Shown piece by piece: positions 3,193 to 59,997 of a stretch of 64,000 nucleotides of DNA (position 1 is the first letter of the stretch; every line of letters begins with the position of its first letter). The notes under the pieces are model-generated. The model was not told where the DNA came from. It saw nothing but the letters and a program-made list of their open reading frames with translations, and did not search any database. Location of the stretch: the NCBI GenBank assembly GCA_951799425.1, contig OX637402.1, positions 9,390,001-9,454,000 on the forward strand, in the 5' to 3' direction. A program made the position numbers and the translations under genes. The stretch comes from Ilex aquifolium. Its lineage: Eukaryota > Streptophyta > Magnoliopsida > Aquifoliales > Aquifoliaceae.

Positions 3193-3273
3193 TTTTAAAT
3201 ATAGTATTACTTGTTGCATAAGCATGCGGTTAAGTGTGTATATGTGTGTGAATTTCGGGGACGAAATTGTTTT

Positions 3274-3286
3274 AAGCGGGGAAGAA
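3274..3286 (+). promoter_or_regulatory. Polypurine tract
   Basis: The purine run aagcggggaagaa abuts the LTR start at 3287. It is preceded by the aatttcggggacgaaat block found just before the 3' LTR of many plant chromoviruses. It would prime plus-strand DNA synthesis. Confidence 0.8.
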
Positions 3287-16390: not shown

Positions 16391-16486
16391 GTACCGGTAC
16401 CGGGTACCGGTACCAATTAGCTACTGGTTCCGGGGTACCGGTACTGGGTACCGGTACTGTTCGGTACCGGTACTGGGTACCGGTAC
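16391..16486. repeat. Cluster of GTACCGGTAC palindromes (minus-strand LTR)
   Basis: Six perfect gtaccggtac palindromes start at 16391, 16404, 16435, 16448, 16464 and 16477. The nearest is about 46 bp upstream of the decayed TATA position (16336-16345, minus strand). Confidence 0.9.
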
Positions 16487-20253: not shown

Positions 20254-22275
20254 TGTGACACCCCAAAATACGGGGGTCCGTTGATTACCCATCAACCCGC
20301 GGAATACCTGTAGATACCTAGTATCTCGATATCACACTGTTATGCCCCATTTACCGGGGTCCATAACTTAACGAAATTTGGGCAGAGTCTCCTTTGTATG
20401 GGGAGCTCTACCTAATACCCAACCTGTGCAATACACAATTACCAGACCCATCCGAGGTCAAATATAAAGCAAAGGCCGCACCGGGTCCATGTATAAGTAA
20501 ACATTGGCCACACTGGGTCCAATTAACCATACTTAAATCAAAACATGAAAGACTAATCTAACAATAGTCTTTATAAGTTTTATTACAATTATTTTACGCA
20601 TTACATGCCCCAAAATATAGTTTCTAACATGTAATTACACAAAACATTAAGTAAAGCCACATGCGGCTTTCTTCAAGCATGAGGGTCCAAAATGGAGCCA
20701 TCCGCCGGTGTATCTCTCCCACCTGAAATGTGTTCCCGTATAGGGTGAGTCAACGCCCAGTAGAGTATTTCCTACAGAGGCTACTCCTCAACCTATATGC
20801 ATATGAAATGTTCACATGCAACATTCATAAATCTGTAACCATTCCATCAAATAATATACAATTAAATGATGTAATGCTATAATGTGATGCCATGAATGAG
20901 GTGAGACCCACCCATGTGCACTCAACCCGAGTCCACTCTGACTCCCTTTACATGTCAATACCATGTATGTTAAACCGGGCTACCTAAGCCCCATGAAATG
21001 AGATGAGACTCATGTACTCAACCCGAGCCCTTCCCGGCTCCTTTCCCCCATGCAATGCCATGAGTATAAAAACCGGACTTCTCAAGCCCCCGCCATTGGT
21101 ATTACTCACCCAATAACAAATTTAAGAAAATCTCCGGGTCTTTCTTTGGGGTGGGCGTTTATGGACTTCCACCAACGGAACCCAACCGACACGGGATTTG
21201 TGGACTCTTTCCACCAACGGTGCCGCGTACACCAACACACTTTATGGGCTCTTATACCAACGGAAGTGCGTATCCGAAACACCGGGCCTTACACCCGAGA
21301 GGTCGTCTTGCCCCTTCTTGCTAACCCCGACCCAATCTTTTTCTTCTTTTTCATGCAACCATGCGACTCAGTTGAATAATCAATCCAACTTTCCCGAGCC
21401 CATCCACCAACCACCAAGCATGATGATTGATATATGCAACTACCCCCCCACACTCATGCAAGTTTCCCATGAATGTGACATTACCTTATGCCGAATATTT
21501 CATGAATGCCAATGAGCAATTTATCTCCATATTAGACTCCCATAATACCACATAGCTTGTGGTACAAACACCCATGCACAACATCATTATGACACAATGT
21601 CCATGTATGTGATGTTCCCGTACATATGCAATGTAATGACCCATTGCTTCTCTCATGCAAGGTTCATATGTAATGAATGCCATATGAACTGTCTCTACCA
21701 CATTCCAACATATGGTATTAACAACAACCATGCACACACACACACCACTCATGATGTGAATTCCCCGTGCATATGCAATGCGATGTATCATTGCAATAAA
21801 ATTATGTCACATATGTAATGCATGCCATATGGACTAAATTAACATAATCAATTCCATTCCATGGCAATTTACATTATAAACGTATAAATTCCATGCTTCA
21901 TCACAACAATTGATATATCAAAATATATATCTAACATTCACAATTTCAACATAAATCATATCGTACACATATGATTTTCATTTACCACATAAGGCATAAC
22001 ATGTTATTTATCATATAACAATTTCAATCCATTTAGGTATTTTGTCAAACACCTTCAAGGCAAACAACATGATAACATATATCATGCCCAATTTCCACAT
22101 AATTCAAGAAATTCCAATAGGCAATTTCTACATACCAATTTAGGATAAAATTATTTTACCTAAATTCTACCAATAGGCAAGTGTAATTTTCTAACAACCT
22201 ACCCACCATCTTCATTATTCCATAACCATATACATTTAAATATATGTATACATAGGTCAATATATATAGATATAC

Positions 22276-22325
<50 letters not shown>

Positions 22326-23198
22326 AGCCCATTTATCATAGGCATTTCTAGGTAAGAAATCAACCCAAGTAGGAGAACCCCTACCTCTTGTAGCATGAGA
22401 ATCCCGTAGGAAGCTCCCAAGACCCGAAAACCCAACTCGAAGCTTGATTTTCCCAACTCCCGAAATTTCACCTTCGGTGAATTTCGTTGTTTTTGGTACC
22501 CACGCGTAGCCTTCGTCGACGTGATCACTTCTCCCTTCTAGCTCAACGGAATCCGAGCAACAAAATACAACTCGAATCTTGATTTTCGTATACCCTCATC
22601 CGTTCACCTTCGGTAAAACTTGTGGTTTTTGGTACCCACGCGTAGATGAACTTTGCCTTTTGAATCGACGAATTCCGACAGACAGAACTCCCGGAATCGG
22701 AGCGGGAAGCTTGGAGATGAATTTTTTTCCTTCTCTTTTCTCCCCAACGTCCAGATCAGTAAACACACTGGTTTTTGTGTCTAAAACACAGATATTTGTG
22801 GATATTTATAACCCCGATGCGCGGTGCACGTCGCGCCACATGCCCCCCTTGTCCGGGTCCGTTTTTCGTCCCAAAATGATTCATTAAGTCCCGGATTAAG
22901 TCCAAATGAATTTTATTGGAACTTTAATCCAATTATAAGGAAATTTTATAAAATCCATTATTGGGGACCTTTAAAATTACATTCGCCACGCAGTCGCCTC
23001 GAACGACGTGCAAAAATCCGACTATCTCGGAATTCGACGAAATTTCTAGTGATTACTAGATTTCGCGTTGCGAATCCAATGGCGCACTCTGTTTCCTCAT
23101 CCGAGGTCTAGAACATGATTATTTCAAATACGCATAAGGGTAGAGAATTACCATTTTTCCCTTTTTCAGAAAAAGTTCAAATTTTCCCGGGTTTTACA
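20254..23198 (-). repeat. Array LTR 1 (3'-most in element sense), 2,945 bp
   Basis: The minus-strand LTR runs from TGTAAAACCCGGG (at 23198) to GGGGTGTCACA (at 20254). It keeps states that look ancestral (taccggggtcc, gggtccatgtat, gagcaattt, aatggcgcac), shared with LTR 2 or LTR 9 but not the central copies. Private changes include gggcgttta near 21152. The TATA box (minus strand) is at 22803-22810. Its outer edge carries the target duplication. Confidence 0.92.
22803..22810 (-). promoter_or_regulatory. TATA box of the array LTR (copy 1)
   Basis: The minus strand reads tataaata in ggttataaatatcc, about 390 bp from the LTR start. The same site recurs in all nine LTRs, for example at 35120-35127. 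The minus-strand open frames seen beyond it in each copy are duplicated leader sequence. Confidence 0.6.
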
Positions 23199-24321
23199 TT
23201 CTTCCCCCCTTAAAAAGAATTTTGTCCCCAAAATTCACACCCACGTGCACATTCAACCATATGCATATGTCACAACAATACAGTCTAAACTGTCCCACAT
23301 GTATCCGTCTCTCTCCCGGACTAGGTTCTAAACTCAACCAAGTTCGTTCGTAAAGGCACCACATATCCTGTGTACCTCTGTCCCATTTCCGGGACTACTA
23401 GAATACGAGGTAAAGTAACCTTCTTTGTAATTTGACAATAGTACCGAAACATCCCAAGGCGAGGCATTCGGTAGTGAAGTCCTTATTCAACCTAGAGTTC
23501 TCACAACTCTACCAGTGTCATTCTATGAAGAGCCATAGAGTAGACAACATACCGGGGTGTAACTCAACACTGAAGTCTACATCCCTACATGGAGGCAAAC
23601 ATTCGTAAGCTCATAAACATCTGAGGTGGACCAAATCTCTGTCTCACCTCGTTCTCTAGGGTAAAGCTTGCTAGCTAACCCATGAACTGTCCGTACCAAC
23701 GGAATTCATACTTTATTTGAGGTAAAACGTCATGCGTTTCTCCTAAAACTTAAAACATACACACTCCGAGGTGTAAACAGTGACCCGCTGACGATCACAA
23801 TCACTGACGACTCAGTGTGCCGTCAATCCGTCCATCCCAAGGATGACATCAAATTCTAACATGTCTGTGGAGTAGAATCCCCAACAATCCTAGCTCACAT
23901 TCCCGACATACCCATTTAGTACTCGCCCTAGCTCCTAGGGGAGAACTCACAAACAATGGCTCTTCCAAGATTACAATCTCTGAGCCCATTCCCTTACTCA
24001 AGTTAAATTGTCATAGGACAATAACTTAATATCCCAATGTAGGGACCAAGTTCAAAACAAGGAGAATTCCCTCACCGTCTCACTAGTAGACATTTAACCC
24101 ATGAACTCTCCCGTTCATCCTTTTTCGAACTCCCAAGGTTATGTTTTCTAACCCTAGTGTTCCTCTTTTTCATATACATTTTACCATGTATACAATTTAC
24201 ACATAACACATAATCATGTAACAAATAAAACACATAACATGAATGCACATGGAATGCAATGGTGTAAACCCATTTCCCTCAAGCCCTAGGTAAATCGTAT
24301 ACCTATGCTCTGATACCAAGC
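23199..24321 (-). pseudogene. Array internal segment 1 (1,123 bp): PPT, RT/protease remnant, PBS
   Basis: The plus strand starts with the complement of a polypurine tract and ends with the complement of tggtatcagagc (24307-24318). Between them, on the minus strand, are pieces of chromovirus pol: a protease C-terminal region (LEFDVILGMD, about 23831-23866) and the start of reverse transcriptase (DVDFSVELHPG, about 23551-23586, then a decayed PWG region). Gag, most of RT, RNase H, integrase and chromodomain are deleted. This copy lacks the 15-bp duplication present in all the others. Confidence 0.8.
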
Positions 24322-27300
24322 TGTGACACCCCAAAATCCGGGGGTCCGTTGATTACCCATCAACCCGCGGAATACCTGTAGATACCTAGTATCTCGATAT
24401 CACACTGTTATGCCCCATTTACCGGGGTCCATAACTTAACGAAATTTGGGCAGAGTTTCCTTTGTATGGGGAGCTCTACCCAATACCCAACCTGTGCAAT
24501 ACACAATTACCAGACCCATCCGAGGTCAAATATAATGCAAAGGCCGCACCGGGTCCATGTATAAGTAAACATTGGCCACACTGGGTCCAATTAACCATAC
24601 TTAAATCAAAACATGAAAGACTAATCTAACAATAGTCTTTATAAGTTCTATTACAATTATTTTACGCATTACATGCCCCAAAATATAGTTTCTAACATGT
24701 AATTACACAAAACATTAAGTAAAGCCACATGCGGCTTTCTTCAAGCATGAGGGTCCAAAATGGAGCCATCCGCCGGTGTATCTCTCCCACCTGATATGTG
24801 TTCCCGTATAGGGTGAGTCAACGCCCAGTAGAGTATTTCCTACAGAGGCTACTCCTCAACCTATATGCATATGAAATGTTCACATGCAACATTCATAAAT
24901 CCGTAACCATTCCATCAAATAATATACAAATAAATGATGTAATGCTATAATGTGATGCCATGAATGAGGTGAGACCCACCCATGTGCACTCAACCCGAGT
25001 CCACTCTGACTCCCTTTACATGTCAATGCCATGTATGTTAAACCGGGCTACCTAAGCCCCATGAAATGAGATGAGACTCATGTACTCAACCCGAACCCTT
25101 CCCGGCTCCTTTCCCCCATGCAATGCCATGAGTATAAAAACCGGACTTCTCAAGCCCCCGCCATTGGTATTACTCACCCAATAACTAATTTAAGAAAATC
25201 TCCGGGTCTTTCTTTGGGGTGGGCATTTATGGACTTCCACCAACGGAACCCAACCGACACGGGATTTATGGACTCTTTCCACCAACGGTGCCGCGTACAC
25301 CAACACACTTTATGGGCTCTTATACCAACGGAAGTGCGTATCTGAAACACCGGGCCTTGCACCCGAGAGGTCGTCTTGCCCCTTCTTGCTAACCCCGACC
25401 CAATCTTTTTCTTCTTTTTCATGCAACCATGCGACTCAGTTGAATAATCAATCCAACTTTCCCGAGCCCATCCACGAACCACCAAGCATGATGATTGATA
25501 TATGCAACTACCCCCTCACACTCATGCAAGTTTCCCATGAATGTGACATCACCTTATGCCCAATATGTCATGAATGCCAATGAGCAATTTATCTCCATAT
25601 TAGACTCCCATAATACCACATAGCTTGTGGTACAAACACCCATGCACAACATCATTATGACACAATGTCCATGTATGTGATGTTCCCGTACATATGCAAT
25701 GTAATGACCCATTGCTTCTCTCATGCAAGGTTCATATGTAATGAATGCCATATGAACTGTCTCTACCACATTCCAACATATGGTATTAACAACAACCATG
25801 CACACACACACACCACTCATGATGTGAATTCCCCGTGCATATGCAATGCGATGTATCATTGCAATAAAATTATGTCACATATGTAATGCATGCCATTTGG
25901 ACTAAATTAACATAATCAATTCCATTCCATGGCAATTTACATTATAAACGTATAAATTCCATGCTTCATCACAACAATTGATATATCAAAATATATATCT
26001 AACATTCACAATTTCAACATAAATCATATCGTACACATATGATTTTCATTTACCACATAAGGCATAACATGTTATTTATCATATAACAATTTCAATCCAT
26101 TTAGGTATTTTGTCAAACACCTTCAAGGCAAACAACATGATAACATATATCATGCCCAATTTCCACATAATTCAAGAAATTCCAATAGGCAATTTCTACA
26201 TACCAATTTAGGATAAAATTATTTTACCTAAATTCTACCAATAGGCAAGTGTAATTTTCTAACAACCTACCCACCATCTTCATTATTCCATAACCATATA
26301 CATTTAAATATATGTATACATAGGTCAATATATATAGATATACATGATTGATCAAAAACACGGTGTTGTTTTCTAACCTTTAAACATCACCCTCACCCTC
26401 AATGTGTGTATGGCTTATAGGAATGGGGGAGTGTCACTCTCCCTCGGAATGATGCAAAAGATTAGGCAACAACGGAATGGTGGTGGATGGAATTGTGGAA
26501 TGAACAAAATGTTATGAAATGGAATGCGTGTGTGGTGAACAGAAGTGCTCCCCAATCGCAAGGAGTCTTTCGTTGTCGATGTTTTACTTGGAAGAGTATT
26601 CCAAGGTCGTCTCCTCAGGGAAGGAAATGGAGTTTTGTGAAAGTGATTTTGCAAAAGTGAAAAGAAAGTGTAAAATCTTGTATTTGAGTTTTGTGTTTGG
26701 TTTGTGAATGAAAATGCAAATAAAGCAAGTGTTGATTAACCACAAAGGTTCACTCCAAAGAGAATGTCAAGCCAACTCAAAGCCTTCCTCCGATTGAGCA
26801 TGAATGAACGATTGATTCGGGAGAAGCTAGGGACGAGATTGGTGAGTAATCTAAGCATAAACCGTGACTAGGCCTACGGAATATCAAAGGCTCACCAACT
26901 CATCCACTCTCAACCCCGTCAAACCGAACCATTTGACTCTAAAGGGAGGAATGAAGAAGAGTTGAAAATGGTATTCCCAAGAGGAATTTTCCCTTGGATT
27001 AACCAACTTAAATCCTAGCTAATCATACATAAAAATGAAAGACAAGCATAATGTAAAGACATATAATGAAGACATGAAGCATGAAAATTAACTTACAACA
27101 AGAAATCTAAAGCTATGAAGAGAAATATTCAAAACCCATTTTAAGCTAAAAATGAAGAACTTGAAAGCATAACAATGGTGAAAAGTAAAGTGCAAGGCTA
27201 AACTTGAAATGAACATGAAATAGATGAGATTAAAGTGCAAGGATTAAGAATTACAAGAGTATGAAAGCTTACTACAACAAAAACGGAGAAGAAAATGCAA

Positions 27301-27691
27301 AAACGAAAATACTATTCATCATCTTCCTCCTTGGAGCTTTCTATCTCTACTCCTAAGCTTAGGTAGCCAACCCCCTTTCCAATGTGTGTTGAATGCTAAA
27401 TAAATGGAGTGTGAAAGACTTCCAATTTCGTGCATGGTGGTCCCCCTAGCATGTGCAAGCTCTCCCATCAAGAGAGGTTGAATGGATGGCTCTTCAAAGG
27501 CTATGGAGACAACCCACATGGTAGCCACATCTCTCCCATCCTCCATTAATTGCAAAGCCTCCAAAGTCTTCCAATAGGGTGTAGGAGGGATGTGGTTGTG
27601 TAAGAAAATGTTGGGGAGCAAGTGGGAGAAGAGTAGGTGGGACCCCCAAGCCTCAAAGATGAGTTACAGGCTGTTTTCGGCATTCTGGGCA

Positions 27692-27766
27692 AAACCTTCC
27701 GGAAGGTTTTTGTAAACCTTCCGGAAGGTCGACTCCAGTAGGCAAAACCTTCCGGAAGGTCTTTCG
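27692..27766. repeat. Cluster of CCTTCCGGAAGG palindromes
   Basis: Perfect palindromes occur at 27692-27709 (aaaccttccggaaggttt), 27716-27729 and 27747-27760, followed by a partial copy (ctttcggaagg). They are in the expected U3 position, but the TATA box here appears decayed. Confidence 0.85.
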
Positions 27767-28038
27767 GAAGGTGACAGCTCCGGACCAGTTTTGGTAGAAA
27801 TTTCATAACTCTTGATCGAACCGTTGGATTGAGCTGAAATTTTGACACCAAACAGAAGACACCCATATCTACAACTTTCATGTTTTGAACTTTTCCAAAT
27901 TATGAGTAGATCATGGTCAAAATGGAGGAATTCAGAGGCAGTGCTTCCAATTGTTGCTGCAGCTGGTGCCCTTGTTCCCAAGCACCAATGCCTTCTTGAT
28001 TTCTTCACTTTTAAGCCTCCAATTCTTCATGTATTGTG

Positions 28039-30326
28039 TGTGAAACCCGGGAAAATTTGATTTTTTTCTGAAAAGGGGCAAAATAGTCATTTGCCACTAC
28101 TGAGCGTATTTAAAATACATATGTTCTAGACCTCGGATGAGGAAACGGAGTGCGTCGTTGGATTCGCAACGCGAAATATAGTAACCACCAGAAAATTCGT
28201 CGAATTCCGAGATAGTCGGATTTTTGCACGTAGTTCGAGACGACTGCGTGGCGATGGATCTTTTAAAGGTCCCCAGTAATGGATTTTATAAAATTTCCTT
28301 ATAATTGGATTAAAGTTCCAATAAAATTAATTTGGACTTAATCCGGGATTTAATGAGTCGTTTCGGGACGAAAAACGGACCCGAAAGTCGAAAATATGCG
28401 GTGCGATGTGGACCGCTCATTTGCGACTATAAATAGGGAACAAATATCTGATTTTATTCAGATTCTTCAGCTAAAAAAACAGTATACACGTTTTTGGAGA
28501 GAGAGGAGAGAAAAAGTGGGTTTTTAAATTTTCTTTCGCCGATTCCGGGAGTTCCGTCCGTCGGAATTCGTCGATTCAAAAGGCAAAGTTGATCTACGCG
28601 ACAAGGGCTACGCGTGGGCACCAAAAACAAGGAATTTCACCGAAGATCTAAAGAGGCGATCTTGAGAGATTCAAAGTTTTGGAGTGGTTTTGGTGTTTTT
28701 GGGGGTTTTCTACACTCCTAAGAGGTAGGGGTTCTCCTACTTTGGTCTATTCTTGTTCTAGATGTAGATAAGTGTATATATATATATATATATATATGTA
28801 GGTTTATATATAGATATGCATGGTTCCATGAATTTGGGATGAGGAAGTGTGTTTGGAAAGTATTCATAACAAATTCAACCTTGAAATTAACTATAGAGAA
28901 TTACATGTGTGAATTCTCCTTAGGATTTGATGAATGTGGGCATGAATTGTTTGTAAATATATTGTATGCATTTAAGGTGTTTGTTTAAATGTCTTGGTTG
29001 ATGAAATGAGGTTATTTCAATGATATTGTGATAACATGTTTATGTGTATAGAGACAATTGAAATTATGCTCTATGTTGTCAAGCCATGACTTTGATATGT
29101 TGACATGAATATGAGATTTGGTAGTTATATGCACTTGATATAATTGTCATGAAGTTATGACATGTTGAACATGTGGATACATTGCTCATGTGGTAGTTAT
29201 TGCATTTTGAGCATTTTCATGGCATCACATTCATGGGACTATTGCATGAGTGTTGGTGTGTGGGAGATGCATGGATATAATCAACACCTTGTTTGGTAGT
29301 TGATATGTGGGCTTGGAAATGTGGACCGATGGTCACATGGAGTCACATGATTGCATTGCATAAGGAAAACTTGTGTTGGGTATAGCAAGAAGGGGCATGG
29401 CGACTTCCTTGGGTGAAAAGCCCTAAACCACTTGGTTCATACACTTCCCGGGGTGAAATTCCGCAAAAGTGTAATGCTTACGGAGCCAGGGTGAAATTCC
29501 AAAATCCGTTGCCCAAAGGAAACACAAGATTTGGTTATAAAAACACCCATTCAATGGGTAGATTCCAATAATGATCGGATTTCATAACGATCATTGGAAG
29601 GATTTTTTTCGTCAATAGACGGGTTGCATTACACTTTGGCGTTGCATTGTGTTGTGTGAGTCGGTGAGGACTCGGGTTGAAACGCATGGGTGAATGTTAC
29701 TTCATTCCATGGCATAGCATTGTTGCATTCCATCATAGAATGCATAAGTATGAGAAATGTTTAGTTATATGTTTATGTGATGATTACATGAGCATGTGCA
29801 TCTAGGGGAAGAGTAACCTCTATAGGTTTATCTCTACTGGGCGTTGTGCTCACCCTATACGGGAAACAATTTCAGGTGTTGGGTTTACACCGGCGATTGG
29901 CTCCCATGGAGAGCATCAAGGGTGAAGGGGGCCTATGTGTGGCCTTATCTCAAGATTTTGTAAACCTTTTGTTTTAAGATGGTTTATGACATGTAAATAT
30001 GGTAATCATATTTGACTACTTATAATGGAACCTTGTATGTTATATAAGTATGGTTAATTGGACTCAGTGTGGCCAATGTTTACTTATACATGGACCCGGT
30101 GCGGCAATTGCTTTATATTTGACCTCGGATGGGTCTGGAAATTGTGTATTGCAAAGGTTGGGTATTGGGTAGAGCTCCCCATACAAAGGAGACTCTGCCC
30201 AAATTTCGTAAGTTATGGACCCCGGTAAGTGGGGCATAACAGTGTGATATCGAGACACAAGGTATCTATAGGTATTCCGCGGGTTGATGGGTAATCAACG
30301 GACCCCCGGATTTTTGGGGCGTCACA
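28039..30326 (+). mobile_element. Solo LTR of the array's lineage, 2,288 bp, target duplication ttgtg
   Basis: It begins TGTGAAACCCGGG and ends GGGGCGTCACA, flanked by ttgtg (28034-28038 and 30327-30331). The 3' part (ggtattccgcgggttgatgg and following) closely matches the array LTRs in reverse, and the 5' block with cgaattccgagatagtcgg is also shared. The middle differs. It carries a good TATA box at 28428-28435. It lies opposite to the array in orientation and is the deepest insertion in this nest. Confidence 0.9.
28428..28435 (+). promoter_or_regulatory. TATA box of the solo LTR at 28039
   Basis: Tataaata in gcgactataaataggg, about 390 bp from the LTR start, the same relative position as in the array LTRs. 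Confidence 0.6.
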
Positions 30327-30519
30327 TTGTGTCCATGCCTTCACCACACATCCAACATAGTTGCAATGTCCTAAAATACATGATTTAAGCAATAAAAACT
30401 TGCAACATCAAAATATCAACATTATTCATAAATCGGCTAACCCTAAGTACTTAAATGCAAAAGTTGAGTTAAAATGCATGTAATGAGGCCTTGATATATG
30501 CAATATTATGTGCTCATCA

Positions 30520-30555
<36 letters not shown>

Positions 30556-31442
30556 AGCCCATTTATCATAGGCATTTCTAGGTAAGAAATCAACCCAAGT
30601 AGGAGAACTCCTACCTCTTGTAGCGTGAGAATCCCGTAGGAAGCTCCCAAGACCCGAAAACCCAACTCGAAGCTTGATTTTCCCAACTCCCGAAATTTCA
30701 CCTTCGGTGAAATTCGTTGTTTTTGGTACCCACGCGTAGCCTTCGTCGACGTGATCACTTCTCCCTTCTAGCTCAACGGAATCCGAGCAACAAAATACAA
30801 CTCGAATCTTGATTTTCGTATACCCTCATCCGTTCACCTTCGGTAAAACTTGTGGTTTTTGGTACCCACGTGTAGCCCTCGTCGCGTAGATGAACTTTGC
30901 CTTTTGAATCGACGAATTCCGACAGACGGAACTCCCGGAATCAGAGCGGGAAGCTTGGAGATGAATTTTTTTCCTTCTCTTTTCTCCCCAACGTCCAGAC
31001 CAGTAAACACACTGGTTTTTGTGTCTAAAACACAGATATTTGTGGATATTTATAACCCCGATGCGCGGTGCACGTCGCGCCACATGTCCCCCTCGTCCGG
31101 GTCCGTTTTTCGTCCCAAAATGATTCAGTAAGTCCCGGATTAAGTCCAAATGAATTTTATTGGAACTTTAATCCAATTATAAGGAAATTTTATAAAATCC
31201 AATATTGGGGACCTTTAAAATTACATTCGCCACGCAGTCGCCTCGAACGACGTGCAAAAATCTGACTATCTCGGAATTCGACGAAATTTCTAGTGATTAC
31301 TAGATTTCGCGTTGCGAATCCAATGGCGCACTCTGTTTCCTCATCCGAGGTCTAGAACATGATTATTTCAAATACGCATAAGGGTAGAGAATTACCATTT
31401 TGCCCTTTTTCAGAAAAAGTTCAAATTTTCTCGGGTTTTACA

Positions 31443-38669: not shown

Positions 38670-38707
<38 letters not shown>

Positions 38708-42750: not shown

Positions 42751-42814
<64 letters not shown>

Positions 42815-46857: not shown

Positions 46858-46901
<44 letters not shown>

Positions 46902-47788: not shown

Positions 47789-48926
47789 TTCTTCCCCCCT
47801 TAAAAAGAATTTCGTCCCCGTAATTCACACCCACGTGCACATTCAACCATATGCATATGTCACAACAATACAGTCTAAACTGTCCCACATGTATCCGTCT
47901 CTCTCCCGGACTAGGTTCTAAACTCAACCAAGTTCGTTCGTAAAGGCACCACATATCCCGTGTACCTCTGTCCCATTTCCGGGACTACTAGAATACGAGG
48001 TAAAGTAACCTTCTTTGTAATTTGACAATAGTACCGAAACATCCCAAGGCGAGGCATTCGGTAGTGAAGTCCTTATTCAACCTAGAGTTCTCACAACTCT
48101 ACCAGTGTCATTCTATGAGGAGCCATAGAGTAGACAACATACCGGGGTGTAACTCAACACTGAAGTCTACATCCCTACATGGAGGCAAACATTCGTAAGC
48201 TCATAAACATCTGAGGTGGACCAAATCTCTGTCTCACCTCGTTCTCTAGGGTAAAGCTTGCTAGCTAACCCATGAACTGTCCGTACCAACGGAATTCATA
48301 CTTTATTTGAGGTAAAACGTCATGCGTTTCTCCTAAAACTTAAAACATACACACTCCGAGGTGTAAACAGTGACCCGCTGACGATCACAATCACTGACGA
48401 CTCAGTGTGCCGTCAATCCGTCCATCCCAAGGATGACATCAAATTCTAACATGTCTGTGGAGTAGAATCCCCAAGAATCCTAGCTCACATTCCCGACATA
48501 CCCATTTAGTACTCACCCTAGCTCCTAGGGGAGAACTCACAAACAATGGCTCTTCCAATATTACAATCTCTGAGCCCATTCCCTTACTCAAGTTAAATTG
48601 TCATAGGACAATAACTTAATATCCCAATGTAGGGACCAAGTTCAAAACAAGGAGAATTCCCTCACCGTCTCACTAGTAGACATTTAACCCATGAACTCTC
48701 CCGTTCATCCTTTTTCGAACTCCCAAGGTTATGTTTTCTAACCCTAGTGTTCCTCTTTTTCATATACATTTTACCATGTATACAATTTACACATAACACA
48801 TAATCATGTAGCACATAATCATGTAACAAATAAAACACATAACATGAATGCACATGGAATGCAATGGTGTAAACCCATTTCCCTCAAGCCCTAGGTAAAT
48901 CGTATACCTATGCTCTGATACCAAGC
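47789..48926 (-). pseudogene. Array internal segment 6 (1,138 bp)
   Basis: Central-group copy with the private change cttccaatatt (near 48553). Confidence 0.8.
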
Positions 48927-50944
48927 TGTGACACCCCAAAATCCGGGGGTCCGTTGATTACCCATCAACCCGCGGAATACCTGTAGATACCTAGTATCTC
49001 GATATCACACTGTTATGCCCCATTTATCGGGGTCCATAACTTAACGAAATTTGGGCAGAGTCTCCTTTGTATGGGGAGCTCTACCCAATACCCAACCTGT
49101 GCAATACACAATTACCAGACCCATCCGAGGTCAAATATAAAGCAAAGGCCGCACCGAGTCGATGTATAAGTAAACATTGGCCACACTGGGTCCAATTAAC
49201 CATACTTAAATCAAAACATGAAAGACTAATCTAACAATAGTCTTTATAAGTTCTATTACAATTATTTTACGCATTACATGCCCCAAAATATAGTTTCTAA
49301 CATGTAATTACACAAAACATTAAGTAAAGCCACATGCGGCTTTCTTCAAGCATGAGGGTCCAAAATGGAGCCATCCGCCGGTGTATCTCTCCCACCTGAA
49401 ATGTGTTCCCGTATAGGGTGAGTCAACGCCCAGTAGAGTATTTCCTACAGAGGCTACTCCTCAACCTATATGCATATGAAATGTTCACATGCAACATTCA
49501 TAAATCCGTAACCATTCCATCAAATAATATACAATTAAATGATGTAATGCTATAATGTGATGCCATGAATGAGGTGAGACCCACCCATGTGCACTCAACC
49601 CGAGTCCACTCTGACTCCCTTTACATGTCAATGCCATGTATGTTAAACCGGGCTACCTAAGCCCCATGAAATGAGACGAGACTCATGTACTCAACCCGAG
49701 CCCTTCCCGGCTCCTTTCCCCCATGCAATGCCATGAGTATAAAAACCGGACTTCTCAAGCCCCCGCCATTGGTATTACTCACCCAATAACTAATTTAAGA
49801 AAATCTCCGGGTCTTTCTTTGGGGTGGGCATTTATGGACTTCCACCAACGGAACCCAACCGACACGGGATTTATGGACTCTTTCCACCAACGGTGCCGCG
49901 TACACCAACACACTTTATGGGCTCTTATACCAACGGAAGTGCGTATCTGAAACACCGGGCCTTGCACCCGAGAGGTCGTCTTGCCCCTTCTTGCTAACCC
50001 CGACCCAATCTTTTTCTTCTTTTTCATGCAACCATGCGACTCAGTTGAATAATCAATCCAACTTTCCCGAGCCCATCCACCAACCACCAAGCATGATGAT
50101 TGATATATGCAACTACCCCCCCACACTCATGCAAGTTTCCCATGAATGTGACATCACCTTATGCCCAATATGTCATGAATGCCAATGAGAAATTTATCTC
50201 CATATTAGACTCCCATAATACCACATAGCTTGTGGTACAAACACCCATGCACAACATCATTATGACACAATGTCCATGTATGTGATGTTCCCGTACATAT
50301 GCAATGTAATGACCCATTGCTTCTCTCATGCAAGGTTCATATGTAATGAATGCCATATGAACTGTCTCTACCACATTCCAACATATGGTATTAACAACAA
50401 CCATGCACACACACACACCACTCATGATGTGAATTCCCCGTGCATATGCAATGCGATGTATCATTGCAATAAAATTATGTCACATATGTAATGCATGCCA
50501 TATGGACTAAATTAACATAATCAATTCCATTCCATGGCAATTTACATTATAAACGTATAAATTCCATGCTTCATCACAACAATTGATATATCAAAATATA
50601 TATCTGACATTCACAATTTCAACATAAATCATATCGTACACATATGATTTTCATTTACCACATAAGACATAACATGTTATTTAGCATATAACAATTTCAA
50701 TCCATCTAGGTATTTTGTCAAACACCTTCAAGGCAAACAACATGGTAACATATATCATGCCCAATTTCCACATAATTCAAGAAATTCCAATAGGCAATTT
50801 CTACATACCAATTTAGGATAAAATTATTTTACCTAAATTCCACCAATAGGCAAGTGTAATTTTCTCACAACCTACCCACCATCTTCATTATTCCATAACC
50901 ATAACCATATAAATATATGTATACATAGGTCAATATATATAAAA

Positions 50945-50982
<38 letters not shown>

Positions 50983-51869
50983 AGCCCATTTATCATAGGC
51001 ATTTCTAGGTAAGAAATCAACCCAAGTAGGAGAACCCCTACCTCTTGTAGCGTGAGAATCCCGTAGGAAGCTCCCAAGACCCGAAAACCCAACTCGAAGC
51101 TTGATTTTCCCAACTCCCGAAATTTCACCTTCGGAGAAATTCGTTGTTTTTGGTACCCACGCGTAGCCTTCGTCGACGTGATCACTTCTCCCTTCTAGCT
51201 CAACGGAATCCGAGCAACAAAATACAACTCGAATCTTGATTTTCGTATACCCTCATCCGTTCACCATCGGTAAAACTTGTGGTTTTTGGTACCCACGCGT
51301 ACCCCTCGTCGCGTAGATGAACTTTGCCTTTTGAATCGACGAATTCCGACAGACGGAACTCCCGGAATCGGAGCGGGAAGCTTGGAGATGAATTTTTTTC
51401 CTTCTCTTTTCTCCCCAACGTCCAGACCAGTAAACACACTGGTTTTTGTGTCTAAAACACAGATATTTGTGGATATTTATAACCCCGATGCGCGGTGCAC
51501 GTCGCGCCACATGCCCCCCTCGTCCGGGTCCGTTTTTCGTCCCAAAATGATTCAGTAAGTCCCGGATTAAGTCCAAATGAATTTTATTGGAACTTTAATC
51601 CAATTATAAGGAAATTTTATAAAATCCATTATTGGGGACCTTTAAAATTACATTCGCCACGCAGTCGCCTCGAACGACGTGCAAAAATCCGACTATCTCG
51701 GAATTCGACGAAATTTCTAGTGATTACTAGATTTCGCGTTGCGAATCCAATAGCGCACTCTGTTTCCTCATCCGAGGTCTAGAACATGATTATTTCAAAT
51801 ACGCATAAGGGTAGAGAATTACCATTTTGCCCTTTTTCAGAAAAAGTTCAAATTTTCCCGAGTTTTACA
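48927..51869 (-). repeat. Array LTR 7, 2,943 bp
   Basis: Central-group copy with the private change ttatttagcat (near 50678). Confidence 0.92.
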
Positions 51870-53007
51870 TTCTTCCCCCCTTAAAAAGAATTTCGTCCCC
51901 GTAATTCACACCCACGTGCACATTCAACCATATGCATATGTCACAACAATACAGTCTAAACTGTCCCACATGTATCCGTCTCTCTCCCGGACTAGGTTCT
52001 AAACTCAACCAAGTTCGTTCGTAAAGGCACCACATATCCCGTGTACCTCTGTCCCATTTCCGGGACTACTAGAATACGAGGTAAAGTAACCTTCTTTGTA
52101 ATTTGACAATAGTACCGAAACATCCCAAGGCGAGGCATTCGGTAGTGAAGTCCTTATTCAACCTAGAGTTCTCACAACTCTACCAGTGTCATTCTATGAG
52201 GAGCCATAGAGTAGACAACATACCGGGGTGTAACTCAACACTGAAGTCTACATCCCTACATGGAGGCAAACATTCGTAAGCTCATAAACATCTGAGGTGG
52301 ACCAAATCTCTGTCTCACCTCGTTCTCTAGGGTAAAGCTTGCTAGCTAACCCATGAACTGTCCGTACCAACGGAATTCATACTTTATTTGAGGTAAAACG
52401 TCATGCGTTTCTCCTAAAACTTAAAACATACACACTCCGAGGTGTAAACAGTGACCCGCTGACGATCACAATCACTGACGACTCAGTGTGCCGTCAATCC
52501 GTCCATCCCAAGGATGACATCAAATTCTAACATGTCTGTGGAGTAGAATCCCCAAGAATCCTAGCTCACATTCCCGACATACCCATTTAGTACTCACCCT
52601 AGCTCCTAGGGGAGAACTCACAAACAATGGCTCTTCCAAGATTACAATCTCTGAGCCCATTCCCTTACTCAAGTTAAATTGTCATAGGACAATAACTTAA
52701 TATCCCAATGTAGGGACCAAGTTCAAAACAAGGAGAATTCCCTCACCGTCTCACTAGTAGACATTTAACCCATGAACTCTCCCGTTCATCCTTTTTCGAA
52801 CTCCCAAGGTTATGTTTTCTAACCCTAGTGTTCCTCTTTTTCATATACATTTTACCATGTATACAATTTACACATAACACATAATCATGTAGCACATAAT
52901 CATGTAACAAATAAAACACATAACATGAATGCACATGGAATGCAATGGTGTAAACCCATTTCCCTCAAGCCCTAGGTAAATCGTATACCTATGCTCTGAT
53001 ACCAAGC
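51870..53007 (-). pseudogene. Array internal segment 7 (1,138 bp)
   Basis: Central-group copy, the same length and layout as segment 3. Confidence 0.8.
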
Positions 53008-55025
53008 TGTGACACCCCAAAATCCGGGGGTCCGTTGATTACCCATCAACCCGCGGAATACCTGTAGATACCTAGTATCTCGATATCACACTGTTATGCC
53101 CCATTTATCGGGGTCCATAACTTAACGAAATTTGGGCAGAGTCTCCTTTGTATGGGGAGCTCTACCCAATACCCAACCTGTGCAATACACAATTACCAGA
53201 CCCATCCGAGGTCAAATATAAAGCAAAGGCCGCACCGAGTCGATGTATAAGTAAACATTGGCCACACTGGGTCCAATTAACCATACTTAAATCAAAACAT
53301 GAAAGACTAATCTAACAATAGTCTTTATAAGTTCTATTACAATTATTTTACGCATTACATGCCCCAAAATATAGTTTCTAACATGTAATTACACAAAACA
53401 TTAAGTAAAGCCACATGCGGCTTTCTTCAAGCATGAGGGTCCAAAATGGAGCCATCCGCCGGTGTATCTCTCCCACCTGAAATGTGTTCCCGTATAGGGT
53501 GAGTCAACGCCCAGTAGAGTATTTCCTACAGAGGCTACTCCTCAACCTATATGCATATGAAATGTTCACATGCAACATTCATAAATCCGTAACCATTCCA
53601 TCAAATAATATACAATTAAATGATGTAATGCTATAATGTGATGCCATGAATGAGGTGAGACCCACCCATGTGCACTCAACCCGAGTCCACTCTGACTCCC
53701 TTTACATGTCAATGCCATGTATGTTAAACCGGGCTACCTAAGCCCCATGAAATGAGACGAGACTCATGTACTCAACCCGAGCCCTTCCCGGCTCCTTTCC
53801 CCCATGCAATGCCATGAGTATAAAAACCGGACTTCTCAAGCCCCCGCCATTGGTATTACTCACCCAATAACTAATTTAAGAAAATCTCCGGGTCTTTCTT
53901 TGGGGTGGGCATTTATGGACTTCCACCAACGGAACCCAACCGACACGGGATTTATGGACTCTTTCCACCAACGGTGCCGCGTACACCAACACACTTTATG
54001 GGCTCTTATACCAACGGAAGTGCGTATCTGAAACACCGGGCCTTGCACCCGAGAGGTCGTCTTGCCCCTTCTTGCTAACCCCGACCCAATCTTTTTCTTC
54101 TTTTTCATGCAACCATGCGACTCAGTTGAATAATCAATCCAACTTTCCCGAGCCCATCCACCAACCACCAAGCATGATGATTGATATATGCAACTACCCC
54201 CCCACACTCATGCAAGTTTCCCATGAATGTGACATCACCTTATGCCCAATATGTCATGAATGCCAATGAGAAATTTATCTCCATATTAGACTCCCATAAT
54301 ACCACATAGCTTGTGGTACAAACACCCATGCACAACATCATTATGACACAATGTCCATGTATGTGATGTTCCCGTACATATGCAATGTAATGACCCATTG
54401 CTTCTCTCATGCAAGGTTCATATGTAATGAATGCCATATGAACTGTCTCTACCACATTCCAACATATGGTATTAACAACAACCATGCACACACACACACC
54501 ACTCATGATGTGAATTCCCCGTGCATATGCAATGCGATGTATCATTGCAATAAAATTATGTCACATATGTAATGCATGCCATATGGACTAAATTAACATA
54601 ATCAATTCCATTCCATGGCAATTTACATTATAAACGTATAAATTCCATGCTTCATCACAACAATTGATATATCAAAATATATATCTGACATTCACAATTT
54701 CAACATAAATCATATCGTACACATATGATTTTCATTTACCACATAAGACATAACATGTTATTTATCATATAACAATTTCAATCCATCTAGGTATTTTGTC
54801 AAACACCTTCAAGGCAAACAACATGGTAACATATATCATGCCCAATTTCCACATAATTCAAGAAATTCCAATAGGCAATTTCTACATACCAATTTAGGAT
54901 AAAATTATTTTACCTAAATTCCACCAATAGGCAAGTGTAATTTTCTCACAACCTACCCACCATCTTCATTATTCCATAACCATAACCATATAAATATATG
55001 TATACATAGGTCAATATATATAAAA

Positions 55026-55057
<32 letters not shown>

Positions 55058-55946
55058 CCAGCCCATTTATCATAGGCATTTCTAGGTAAGAAATCAACCC
55101 AAGTAGGAGAACCCCTACCTCTTGTAGCGTGAGAATCCCGTAGGAAGCTCCCAAGACCCGAAAACCCAACTCGAAGCTTGATTTTCCCAACTCCCGAAAT
55201 TTCACCTTCGGAGAAATTCGTTGTTTTTGGTACCCACGCGTAGCCTTCGTCGACGTGATCACTTCTCCCTTCTAGCTCAACGGAATCCGAGCAACAAAAT
55301 ACAACTCGAATCTTGATTTTCGTATACCCTCATCCGTTCACCATCGGTAAAACTTGTGGTTTTTGGTACCCACGCGTACCCCTCGTCGCGTAGATGAACT
55401 TTGCCTTTTGAATCGACGAATTCCGACAGACGGAACTCCCGGAATCGGAGCGGGAAGCTTGGAGATGAATTTTTTTCCTTCTCTTTTCTCCCCAACGTCC
55501 AGACCAGTAAACACACTGGTTTTTGTGTCTAAAACACAGATATTTGTGGATATTTATAACCCCGATGCGCGGTGCACGTCGCGCCACATGCCCCCCTCGT
55601 CCGGGTCCGTTTTTCGTCCCAAAATGATTCAGTAAGTCCCGGATTAAGTCCAAATGAATTTTATTGGAACTTTAATCCAATTATAAGGAAATTTTATAAA
55701 ATCCATTATTGGGGACCTTTAAAATTACATTCGCCACGCAGTCGCCTCGAACGACGTGCAAAAATCCGACTATCTCGGAATTCGACGAAATTTCTAGTGA
55801 TTACTAGATTTCGCGTTGCGAATCCAATAGCGCACTCTGTTTCCTCATCTGAGGTCTAGAACATGATTATTTCAAATACGCATAAGGGTAGAGAATTACC
55901 ATTTTGCCCTTTTTCAGAAAAAGTTCAAATTTTCCCGAGTTTTACA
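53008..55946 (-). repeat. Array LTR 8, 2,939 bp
   Basis: Central-group copy with the private change catctgaggtc (near 55847). Like LTR 5 it has cccaatatgtc. Confidence 0.92.
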
Positions 55947-57084
55947 TTCTTCCCCCCTTAAAAAGAATTTCGTCCCCGTAATTCACACCCACGTGCACAT
56001 TCAACCATATGCATATGTCACAACAATACAGTCTAAACTGTCCCACATGTATCCGTCTCTCTCCCGGACTAGGTTCTAAACTCAACCAAGTTCGTTCGTA
56101 AAGGCACCACATATCCCGTGTACCTCTGTCCCATTTCCGGGACTACTAGAATACGAGGTAAAGTAACCTTCTTTGTAATTTGACAATAGTACCGAAACAT
56201 CCCAAGGCGAGGCATTCGGTAGTGAAGTCCTTATTCAACCTAGAGTTCTCACAACTCTACCAGTGTCATTCTATGAGGAGCCATAGAGTAGACAACATAC
56301 CGGGGTGTAACTCAACACTGAAGTCTACATCCCTACATGGAGGCAAACATTCGTAAGCTCATAAACATCTGAGGTGGACCAAATCTCTGTCTCACCTCGT
56401 TCTCTAGGGTAAAGCTTGCTAGCTAACCCATGAACTGTCCGTACCAACGGAATTCATACTTTATTTGAGGTAAAACGTCATGCGTTTCTCCTAAAACTTA
56501 AAACATACACACTCCGAGGTGTAAACAGTGACCCGCTGACGATCACAATCACTGACGACTCAGTGTGCCGTCAATCCGTCCATCCCAAGGATGACATCAA
56601 ATTCTAACATGTCTGTGGAGTAGAATCCCCAAGAATCCTAGCTCACATTCCCGACATACCCATTTAGTACTCACCCTAGCTCCTAGGGGAGAACTCACAA
56701 ACAATGGCTCTTCCAAGATTACAATCTCTGAGCCCATTCCCTTACTCAAGTTAAATTGTCATAGGACAATAACTTAATATCCCAATGTAGGGACCAAGTT
56801 CAAAACAAGGAGAATTCCCTCACCGTCTCACTAGTAGACATTTAACCCATGAACTCTCCCGTTCATCCTTTTTCGAACTCCCAAGGTTATGTTTTCTAAC
56901 CCTAGTGTTCCTCTTTTTCATATACATTTTACCATGTATACAATTTACACATAACACATAATCATGTAGCACATAATCATGTAACAAATAAAACACATAA
57001 CATGAATGCACATGGAATGCAATGGTGTAAACCCATTTCCCTCAAGCCCTAGGTAAATCGTATACCTATGCTCTGATACCAAGC
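55947..57084 (-). pseudogene. Array internal segment 8 (1,138 bp)
   Basis: Last internal segment. It carries the central-group cgtccccgtaattc, although the adjoining LTR 9 does not belong to the central group. Confidence 0.8.
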
Positions 57085-59992
57085 TGTGACACCCCAAAAT
57101 CCGGGGGTCCGTTGATTACCCATCAACCCGCGGAATACATGTAGATACCTAGTATCTCGATATCACACTGTTATGCCCCATTTATCGGGGTCCATAACTT
57201 AACGAAATTTGGGCAGAGTCTCCTTTGTATGGGGAGCTCTACCCAATACCCAACCTGTGCAATACACAATTACCAGACCCATCCGAGGTCAAATATAAAG
57301 CAAAGGCCGCACCGAGTCGATGTATAAGTAAACATTGGCCACACTGGGTCCAATTAACCATACTTAAATCAAAACATGAAAGACTAATCTAACAATAGTC
57401 TTTATAAGTTCTATTACAATTATTTTACGCATTACATGCCCCAAAATATAGTTTCTAACATGTAATTACACAAAACATTAAGTAAAGCCACATGCGGCTT
57501 TCTTCAAGCATGAGGGTCCAAAATGGAGCCATCCGCCGGTGTATCTCTCCCACCTGAAATGTGTTCCCGTATAGGGTGAGTCAACGCCCAGTAGAGTATT
57601 TCCTACAGAGGCTACTCCTCAACCTATATGCATATGAAATGTTCACATGCAACATTCATAAATCCGTAACCATTCCATCAAATAATATACAATTAAATGA
57701 TGTAATGCTATAATGTGATGCCATGAATGAGGTGAGATCCACCCATGTGCACTCAACCCGAGTCCACTCTTACTCGCTTTACATGTCAATGCCATGTATG
57801 TTAAACCGGGCTACCTAAGCCCCATGAAATGAGATGAGACTCATGTACTCAACCCGAGCCCTTCCCGGCTCCTTTCCCCCATGCAATGCCATGAGTATAA
57901 AAACCGGACTTCTCAAGCCCCCGCCATTGGTATTACTCACCCAATAACTAATTTAAGAAAATCTCCGGGTCTTTCTTTGGGATGGGCATTTATGGACTTC
58001 CACCAACGGAACCCAACCGACACGGGATTTATGGATTCTTTCCACCAACGGTGCCGCGTACACCAACACACTTTATGGGCTCTTATACCAACGGAAGTGC
58101 GTATCTGAAACACCGGGCCTTGCACCCGAGAGGTCGTCTTGCCCCTTCTTGCTAACCCCGACCCAATCTTTTTCTTCTTTTTCATGCAACCATGCGACTC
58201 AGTTGAATAATCAATCCAACTTTCCCGAGCCCATCCACCAACCACCAAGCATGATGATTGATATATGCAACTACCCCCCCACACTCATGCAAGTTTCCCA
58301 TGAATGTGACATCACCTTATGCCCAATATGTCATGAATGCCAATGAGCAATTTATCTCCATAATAGACTCCCATAATACCACATAGCTTGTGGTACAAAC
58401 ACCCATGCACAACATCATTATGACACAATGTCCATGTATGTGATGTTCCCGTACATATGCAATGTAATGACCCATTGCTTCTCTCATGCAAGGTTCATAT
58501 GTAATGAATGCCATTGTCTCTACCACATTCCAACATATGGTATTAACAACAACCATGCACACACACACACCACTCATGATGTGAATTCCCCGTGCATATG
58601 CAATGCGATGTATCATTGCAATAAAATTATGTCACATATGTAATGCATGCCATATGGACTAAATTAACATAATCAATTCCATTCCATGGCAATTTACATT
58701 ATAAACGTATAAATTCCATGCTTCATCACAACAATTGATATATCAAAATATATATCTGACATTCACAATTTCAACATAAATCATATCGTACACATATGAT
58801 TTTCATTTACCACATAAGGCATAACATGTTATTTATCATATAACAATTTCAATCCATTTAGGTATTTTGTCAAACACCTTCAAGGCAAACAACATGGTAA
58901 CATATATCATGCCCAATTTCCACATAATTCAAGAAATTCCAATAGGCAATTTCTACATACCAATTTAGGATAAAATTATTTTACCTAAATTCCACCAATA
59001 GGCAAGTGTAATTTTCTAACAACCTACCCACCATCTTCATTATTCCATAACCATATACATATAAATATATGTATACATAGGTCAATATATATATATATAT
59101 CCAGCCCATTTATCATAGGCATTTCTAGGTAAGAAATCAACCCAAGTAGGAGAACCCCTACCTCTTGTAGCGTGAGAATCCCGTAGGAAGCTCCCAAGAC
59201 CCGAAAACCCAACTCGAAGCTTGATTTACCCAACTCCCGAAATTTCACCTTCGGTGAAATTCGGTTTTTTTGGTACCAACGCGTAGCCTTCGTCGACGTG
59301 ATCACTTCTCCCTTCTAGCTCAACGGAATCCGAGCAACAAAATACAACTCGAATCTTGATTTTCGTATACCCTCATCCGTTCACCTTCGGTAAAACTTGT
59401 GGTTTTTGGTACCCACGCGTAGCCCTCGTCATGTAGATGAACTTTGCCTTTTGAATCGACGAATTCCGACAGACGGAACTCCCGGAATCGGAGCGGGAAG
59501 CTTGGAGATGAATTTTTTTCCTTCTCTTTTCTCCCCAACGTCCAGACCAGTAAACACACTGGTTTTTGTGTCTAAAACACAGATATTTGTGGATATTTAT
59601 AACCCCAATGCGCGGTGCACGTCGCGCCACATGCCCCCCTCGTCCGGGTCCGTTTTTCGTCCCAAAATGATTCATTAAGTCCCGGATTAAGTCCAAATGA
59701 ATTTTATTGGAACTTTAATCCAATTATAAGGAAATTTTATAAAATCCATTATTGGGGACCTTTAAAATTACATTCGCCACGCAGTCGCCTCGAACGACGT
59801 GCAAAAATCTGACTATCTCGGAATTCGACGAAATTTCTAGTGATTACTAAATTTCGCGTTGCGAATCCAATGGCGCACTCTGTTTCCTCATCCGAGGTCG
59901 TCTAGAACATGATTATTTCAAATACGCATAAGGGTGGAGAATTACCATTTTGCCCTTTTTCAGAAAAAGTTCAAATTTTCCCGGGTTTTACA
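57085..59992 (-). repeat. Array LTR 9 (5'-most in element sense), 2,908 bp
   Basis: The outer LTR begins (minus) TGTAAAACCCGGG at 59992 and is followed by the target duplication ataac. It shares tatcggggtcc and gagtcgatgtat with the central group but keeps older states elsewhere (gagcaattt, catttaggt, ccttcggtaa, aatggcgcac). It has a private 6-bp deletion near 58513 and the shortest (TA)n tract. Confidence 0.92.
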
Positions 59993-59997
59993 ATAAC

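What the first reader, a model, noticed from the sequence alone, without database searches (positions are those of the whole stretch)
20254..59992. Retrotransposon turning into a satellite: nine-LTR, 4.08-kb-period tandem array
Nine 2.9-kb LTRs and eight 1.1-kb internal segments alternate head to tail over 39.7 kb. Adjacent copies share LTRs, so this is not a set of independent insertions. Tandem LTR-internal-LTR arrays are known, but nine LTRs from a deleted, non-autonomous chromovirus with near-identical central units is an unusually large and clean case of satellite birth.
Basis: seen in the sequence. Interest (0 to 1): 0.88.

Follow-up and report, generated by a model that had tools for sequence, protein, structure and literature searches.

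The report
Retrotransposon array with young core
In what is likely a plant genome, nine end-repeats and eight short middles of one jumping gene stand in a 40-kb row inside a single insertion scar; the row likely grew in place by misaligned recombination, with its centre likely copied or evened out ten or more times more recently than its edges, and rows of this kind are already known from plants.

Summary
From 20254 to 59992 nine head-to-tail LTRs (2908-2969 bp) alternate with eight internal segments (1123-1138 bp) at a 4.07-4.11 kb step. One 5-bp target duplication, ATAAC, bounds the whole array; no inner LTR has its own. The element lies on the minus strand with a PBS and PPT and only a faint protease trace inside. 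The copies fall into two age classes: LTR1, LTR2 and LTR9 differ from each other at 34-43 of 2889 sites, LTR3-8 at 2-5 (mean 3.4). So one old insertion has a centre that was amplified, or homogenised, about 10-13 times more recently. I read it as in-place unequal recombination between LTRs; founding and later growth are both inferred. Tandem LTR arrays are published for rice, maize, cotton, almond and Arabidopsis, and Cassandra arrays reach at least 12 LTRs, so this is a large new member of a known kind. Its added value: the two ages bear on how such arrays form, which a 2025 survey left open. Satellite status and true copy number could not be tested: the genome search did not complete and no reads are held.

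The parts
20249..20253 (.). left copy of the array-wide 5-bp target-site duplication, ATAAC
20254..23198 (-). LTR1 (old class)
23199..24321 (-). I1, internal segment, 1123 bp, lacks 15 bp present in the others
24322..31442 (-). LTR2 (old class), split by the nested insertion 26345-30519
26345..30519 (.). nested insertion in LTR2: TG...CA ends, 5-bp duplication ATACA (26340-26344 and 30520-30524), likely a solo LTR of another family
28039..30326 (+). second-level nested solo LTR related to the array LTR (about 77-80% at both ends), duplication TTGTG (28034-28038 and 30327-30331)
31443..32580 (-). I2; differs from the core at three sites, all in its first 198 bp
32581..35515 (-). LTR3 (young core)
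35516..36653 (-). I3 (young core); PPT side 35516-35528, PBS-like 12-mer 36639-36650
   Evidence: the two small coordinates are counted from the boundaries
36654..39594 (-). LTR4 (young core)
39595..40732 (-). I4 (young core)
40733..43701 (-). LTR5 (young core)
43702..44839 (-). I5 (young core)
44840..47788 (-). LTR6 (young core)
47789..48926 (-). I6 (young core)
48927..51869 (-). LTR7 (young core)
51870..53007 (-). I7 (young core)
53008..55946 (-). LTR8 (young core)
55947..57084 (-). I8 (young core)
57085..59992 (-). LTR9 (old class; its first 653 columns are nearly core-like)
59993..59997 (.). right copy of the array-wide target-site duplication, ATAAC
60057..60482 (+). ORF with a sub-cut-off Pol_BBD match (E 5.6e-5) just right of the array: possibly part of a Copia-type element into which the array inserted
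   Evidence: a gag resemblance of the left flank is recalled and was not confirmed
1838..5495 (+). separate chromovirus 3' part: H2C2 integrase zinc finger, SH3_Tf2-1, weak chromodomain, PPT and LTR from 3287; distant relative of the array element

Best explanation
A likely single insertion of a non-autonomous, predicted chromovirus-derived retrotransposon, marked by one ATAAC target duplication around all nine LTRs, likely grew in place into the array by unequal recombination between its own LTRs, in an early step and a much later one. Shown: one TSD, alternating order, shared inner LTRs, two divergence classes of copies. Inferred: (1) a two-LTR element inserted, perhaps into an older Copia-type element; (2) misaligned LTR-LTR exchange between sister chromatids or homologues gave an early array of about four LTRs (ancestors of LTR1, LTR2, the core and LTR9); (3) those lineages diverged; at an undated point a solo LTR, itself carrying or later receiving another, came to lie inside LTR2; (4) about 10-13 times more recently, one middle unit was amplified to about six copies by further unequal exchange and kept alike. 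The recent tract runs from about 31641, inside I2, to between 57138 and 57737, inside LTR9, so its apparent limits are not those of the element.
For: TSD ATAAC at both outer ends and no TSD at any of the 8 inner LTR starts or 8 inner LTR ends. Pairwise differences over 2889 shared columns: LTR1-LTR2 34, LTR1-LTR9 43, LTR2-LTR9 37; core (15 pairs) 2-5, mean 3.4. If all nine LTRs had evolved separately since one insertion, 5 or fewer differences at a mean of 34-43 has Poisson P below 1e-9. The core is a clade in both alignment parts (UFBoot 100 and 98), and core plus LTR9 is a clade in the left part (100). I3-I8 are identical apart from one site in I6. Tract limits: I2 differs from the core at 3 of 1138 sites, all in the first 198; its remaining 940 bp have 0 differences against 34 of 2889 for LTR2 versus core (Fisher P 0.00015); LTR9 has 1 of its 29 differences from the core consensus in its first 653 of 2889 columns (P 0.0056); both limits were chosen after looking. 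Neighbours resemble each other: 7 sites split LTR1,LTR2 from core,LTR9 against 1 and 1 for the other two splits (P 0.025); 3 of those 7 could be polarised with the related solo LTR, and each time LTR1,LTR2 have its state.
Against: Gene conversion could even out six old copies without adding any; sequence alone does not separate this from amplification. The early step is weak: a 7:1:1 split at P 0.025 does not exclude insertion of a ready-made tandem, and the right part of the alignment leaves the old lineages unresolved (UFBoot 53). The I2 limit is softer than its P value: internals seem to change less than LTRs (I1 versus core 7 of 1123, LTR1 versus core 39 of 2889, P 0.068), and even old I1 has only 3 substitutions plus a 15-bp gap in that stretch. 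Breakpoint tests on six LTR pairs gave one nominal hit (LTR9/core, permutation P 0.040; the other five 0.48-0.95), which does not survive correction for six tests. The four-gamete signal is one pair of sites (columns 449 and 1240, the only two core sites that are not singletons) and could be a recurrent mutation. Copy number is as assembled; no reads were available.
Confidence: 0.68

Rival explanations
1. The element inserted as a ready-made tandem (for example from a read-through transcript of a one-LTR circle or of an older tandem), and later recombination only added or evened out the core.
For: One TSD around the array fits. The four old lineages are not far from equidistant (30-43 pairwise differences). 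The 2025 survey calls both routes possible (PMC11899658, parts 1-4 of 6 read).
Against: Seven sites already separate LTR1,LTR2 from core,LTR9 against 1 and 1 for the other splits, which suggests some divergence before the first duplication. It cannot by itself explain a core 10-13 times younger than the edges.
Confidence: 0.18
2. All nine LTRs are old, and gene conversion has recently homogenised the six central ones without any change in copy number.
For: Core identity and the core-like left end of LTR9 and right end of I2 are also what conversion tracts would leave.
Against: Six whole LTRs and six whole internals evened out to about 0.1% over 25 kb, while LTR1 and LTR2 escaped, needs many conversions; one amplification does it with fewer events. 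This is an argument from economy, not a test.
Confidence: 0.1
3. Assembly artefact: the number of core units is wrong, or a unit was duplicated in assembly.
For: The core copies differ by only 2-5 sites per LTR, so their number is hard to assemble.
Against: The nine LTR lengths all differ, from 2908 to 2969 bp, with an AT block of 40, 72, 52, 46 and 42 bp in LTR3, 5, 6, 7 and 8 (the pattern did not match LTR4); nine sites segregate within the core; both outer ends leave the repeat with a matching TSD.
Confidence: 0.06
4. Independent insertions of related elements next to one another.
For: None found.
Against: No inner TSDs; every inner LTR is shared by two internal segments.
Confidence: 0.01

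Closest known systems
Tandem LTR-retrotransposon structures found by IDENTAM (Morales-Diaz et al. 2025, PMC11899658; parts 1-4 of 6 read)
   Same: Alternating LTR and internal segments sharing inner LTRs, a single TSD, one of the two loci described in detail sits inside another transposon; in rice enriched in the Tekay lineage, a chromovirus lineage by recall.
   Different: The two loci described in detail have three LTRs; here nine. The pipeline's maximum locus size was 40,000 bp. The paper could not decide between tandem insertion and later recombination; here the copies have two clearly different ages. Its 28 clear rice tandems contain coding domains; here none reached a cut-off.
Cassandra TRIM long tandem arrays (Kalendar et al. 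2020, PMC7215508; abstract, outline and four passages seen)
   Same: LTR-internal-LTR arrays in plants, at least 12 LTR copies, unequal exchange discussed for later changes in number.
   Different: TRIM elements carrying 5S sequence in their LTRs; here the LTR is 2.9 kb and no Rfam family reaches its gathering score anywhere in the window.
Wukong TRIM in maize (PMC4528315; passages seen)
   Same: Elements with three to seven LTRs, the majority with TSDs, explained by recombination.
   Different: Miniature element, fewer LTRs; that paper leans to recombination between two adjacent elements, which the single TSD here does not call for.
CRM1TR and CRM4TR of maize (PMC3648361; passages seen) and Sobo of potato (recalled; Sobo seen only as a search term in listings)
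   Same: Tandem repeats made from LTR-plus-internal pieces of an LTR retrotransposon.
   Different: 187 full-length CRM1TR monomers were extracted from two loci; here eight units at one locus, with complete LTRs and the element's outer boundary intact.

Membership tests
Tandem LTR-RT structure | alternating LTRs and internals, starting and ending with an LTR | tested here: met
   9 LTRs, 8 internals
Tandem LTR-RT structure | one TSD around the whole, none inside | tested here: met
   ATAAC outside; 8 of 8 inner LTR starts and 8 of 8 inner ends abut internal sequence
Tandem LTR-RT structure | confirmed by spanning reads | not testable with these tools
   no reads held
LTR retrotransposon | TG...CA LTRs with PBS and PPT | tested here: met
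   read by eye: minus-strand LTR TGTAAAACCC...GGTGTCACA, PBS-like TGGTATCAGAGC (initiator tRNA-Met match recalled), PPT AAGGGGGGAAGAA beside the LTR
Chromovirus (Ty3/gypsy) | integrase with a chromodomain in the element itself | tested here: not met
   none in the three internal pieces scanned (of 29 frames listed); the element is a deletion derivative, so this does not exclude descent
Chromovirus (Ty3/gypsy) | homology to a chromovirus | tested here: inconclusive
   LTR 72-76% alike in six pieces (and two of 23-29 bp at 90-96%), and 77 bp of the PPT side 81% alike, to the element at 1838-5495 with SH3_Tf2-1 (1.4e-24) and Chromo (0.0068, below cut-off); internal protease trace RVP_2 at E 0.026, in the same piece as DUF7838 at 0.017
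TRIM | miniature element with short LTRs | tested here: not met
   LTRs 2908-2969 bp
Satellite DNA | homogenised head-to-tail units | tested here: met
   LTR3-8 differ at 2-5 of 2889 sites; LTR1, LTR2 and LTR9 are not homogenised
Satellite DNA | long arrays or many copies in the genome | not tested
   The genome search unanswered six times

The most novel reading that the evidence does not exclude
The locus catches a retrotransposon changing into a satellite: after an early tandem of about four LTRs, one 4.08-kb unit began to amplify on its own by DNA recombination, with limits (inside I2 and inside LTR9) that ignore the element's own ends and long after the element arrived there.
Probability: 0.35. 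Interest if true: 0.58.

Novelty: new member of a known kind. Interest (0 to 1): 0.42.

Why it matters
The 2025 survey of plant tandem LTR retrotransposons could not tell whether such tandems insert ready-made or arise by recombination afterwards. Here the copies carry a relative record: old edges, young core. It indicates that most of the uniformity of a large array was gained long after insertion, and the locus could be compared between accessions to read the steps directly.

Tried and rejected
Independent insertions: rejected for lack of inner TSDs. TRIM: rejected by LTR length. RNA or tRNA genes inside LTRs, as in Cassandra: none at Rfam gathering scores or by ARAGORN. An open reading frame across the rejoined empty site looked like support for a Copia gag, but 1710 of 2000 random joins also had an open run of 29 or more codons in some frame, so it counts for nothing; protein searches with the joined peptide and with a left-flank ORF found no homologue, and Pfam found no gag in seven left-flank ORFs (one chance-level hit at E 0.3). 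A Copia-type target therefore rests only on Pol_BBD at the right (E 5.6e-5, below cut-off) and on recalled resemblance. Pfam on ten further ORFs (nine in the flanks, one in the nested insertion) gave one chance-level hit (E 0.057). A breakpoint test on six LTR pairs was negative in five. Dates with recalled rates of 1.3e-8 and 7e-9 per site and year would be about 0.57-1.06 My for LTR1/LTR9 and 0.045-0.084 My for the core; only the ratio is used.

Papers: 8 of 10 searches used. I noticed no array of nine or more full-size LTRs in those listings and the passages read, but supplementary tables were not readable and most listed papers were not opened, so no claim of a record is made.
Full report
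What is there. Self-comparison of the window shows one head-to-tail array from 20254 to 59992. Exact boundary searches give nine LTRs that on the plus strand begin TGTGACACCCC and end GTTTTACA. Their lengths are 2908-2969 bp and the eight internal segments measure 1123 bp (I1) or 1138 bp (I2-I8). The step is 4068-4107 bp, except for the second unit, whose 8259 bp include a nested insertion.

One insertion. The five bases before LTR1 and the five after LTR9 are both ATAAC. All 8 inner LTR starts follow CTGATACCAAGC, and the 8 inner LTR ends are followed by TTCTTCCCCCC (7) or TTATTCCCCCC (1), that is, by the two edges of the internal segment, so no inner copy has its own target duplication. In its outer boundary the array is one insertion.

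The element. Read on the minus strand, the LTR runs TGTAAAACCC...GGTGTCACA, is followed after three bases by TGGTATCAGAGC, which matches the usual plant initiator tRNA-Met primer site (recalled), and is preceded by the purine run AAGGGGGGAAGAA. The internal segment is small. Three internal pieces of I2 were scanned in Pfam, of 29 frames of 30 aa or more listed around it; one of the three runs over into LTR3. One gave two sub-threshold matches, DUF7838 (E 0.017) and retroviral protease RVP_2 (E 0.026), and none reached a cut-off; frame translations show the protease-like trace broken by a frame change and stops. The element is thus non-autonomous. A separate element at 1838-5495 has an integrase zinc finger (4.1e-15), SH3_Tf2-1 (1.4e-24) and a weak chromodomain (0.0068, below cut-off), followed by a PPT and an LTR starting at 3287. 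Six pieces of that LTR are 72-76% like the array LTR, two pieces of 23-29 bp are 90-96% alike, and 77 bp of the PPT side are 81% alike. A protein search with its integrase end scored 7996 relatives; of the 120 listed the only one with a name is from tea plant, so the host is likely a plant. A chromovirus origin is likely but is not shown in the array element itself.

Two ages. Over 2889 columns without gaps in any LTR, 76 vary. LTR1-LTR2 differ at 34 sites, LTR1-LTR9 at 43 and LTR2-LTR9 at 37. LTR3 to LTR8 differ at 2-5 sites in all 15 pairs, mean 3.4. The edge-to-core ratio is 10-13. I3-I8 are identical but for one site in I6; I2 differs from I3 at 3 sites and I1 at 7 plus a 15-bp gap. If all LTRs had evolved apart since one insertion, 5 or fewer differences where 34-43 are usual has P below 1e-9. 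Maximum-likelihood trees of the left (columns 1-2006) and right (2066-2972) parts both make the core a clade (UFBoot 100 and 98); core with LTR9 is a clade on the left (100), while the right part does not resolve the old lineages (53).

Where the young tract ends. I2 differs from the core only at columns 3, 33 and 198; its remaining 940 bp are identical to the core. LTR9 has 1 of its 29 differences from the core consensus within its first 653 columns. The young tract thus seems to run from about 31641 to somewhere between 57138 and 57737, about 25.5-26.1 kb or 6.2-6.4 units, starting and ending inside repeats instead of at element boundaries. Both limits were chosen after looking at the data. 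The I2 limit is the softer one, since internals seem to change less than LTRs (7 of 1123 against 39 of 2889 for copy 1 versus core, P 0.068). A breakpoint test gave P 0.040 for LTR9/core and 0.48-0.95 for the five other pairs, so it does not survive correction.

Exchange among copies. Within the core nine sites segregate; seven are singletons. The other two, columns 449 (LTR3 and LTR5 alike) and 1240 (LTR3 and LTR4 alike), show all four combinations, and a 2-bp gap shared by LTR3 and LTR4 (columns 1480-1481) agrees with column 1240. This is what exchange between units leaves, though one recurrent change would also do. The AT microsatellite block differs in length in the five core LTRs where the pattern matched (40, 72, 52, 46, 42 bp; LTR4 did not match), and the nine LTR lengths all differ, which speaks against a plain assembly duplication.

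The early step. Seven sites separate LTR1 and LTR2 from core and LTR9; one site each supports the other two splits (P 0.025 for such imbalance under a star). Three of those seven could be aligned with the related solo LTR at 28039-30326, and there it has the LTR1/LTR2 state, so core and LTR9 share derived changes; four could not be polarised. Of the 11 sites where the core stands alone, three could be polarised and in each the core has the derived state. Neighbours being alike fits duplication after some divergence of the two original LTRs, but the signal is weak, and a ready-made tandem of about four LTRs at insertion is not excluded.

Nested insertions. LTR2 is cut at 26345-30519 by a sequence with TG...CA ends and the duplication ATACA, itself cut by a solo LTR at 28039-30326 with the duplication TTGTG. 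Neither is present in any other copy, so neither was copied with the core; the data do not date them more closely.

Mechanism. The favoured account is unequal recombination between LTRs, first early after insertion and again much later within the middle of the array. Conversion without amplification, or insertion as a tandem, remain open for parts of it. Confidence 0.68.

Known kinds. The 2025 survey (PMC11899658, parts 1-4 of 6 read) reports 28 clear tandem LTR-RT structures in Nipponbare rice, 10 of them with perfect 5-nt TSDs, 266 candidates in a pangenome, and others in Arabidopsis, almond and cotton. It says that it could not determine whether they come from complex insertion or recombination. 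Its two detailed loci have three LTRs, and the pipeline's maximum locus size was 40,000 bp. Cassandra arrays have at least 12 LTR copies (abstract; passages); two Wukong elements have six and seven LTRs (passages). Arabidopsis has 10 three-LTR elements and four with more (PMC5379124, passages). The present array is a large member of this kind, not a new kind. Whether it is on its way to being a satellite needs genome-wide data: six requests to search the window's own genome did not complete.

Noticed in passing
26345-30519 within LTR2: A likely solo LTR (TG...CA, TSD ATACA) carries a second solo LTR (28039-30326, TSD TTGTG) that is a relative of the array LTR in the opposite orientation.
   Followed up: partly
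5131-5224 and 27696-27758: The palindrome CTTCCGGAAG is clustered (4 and 3 copies) in two LTR-like sequences of different families, the chromovirus LTR from 3287 and the outer nested insertion in LTR2.
   Followed up: no
11034-11238, 13235-13347, 16390-16486: Clusters of other palindromes centred on CCGG: CTACCGGTAG (7 copies) and GGTACCGGTAC (4 and 6 copies in two places).
   Followed up: no
17470-17555: A short piece 79% like the start of the array LTR and 86% (51 bp) like the nested solo LTR: a fragment of a further related LTR.
   Followed up: no
62699-63614: A region about 66% like the outer nested insertion of LTR2 over 852 bp, with a further 41-bp piece at 80%, likely a member of that wider repeat family near the window end.
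   Followed up: no
2-622: Minus-strand ORF with a Retrotrans_gag match (E 5.1e-9), a further retrotransposon fragment at the window edge.
   Followed up: no
9671-10086 and 16987-17403: An inverted repeat pair of about 420 bp, 78% alike.
   Followed up: no
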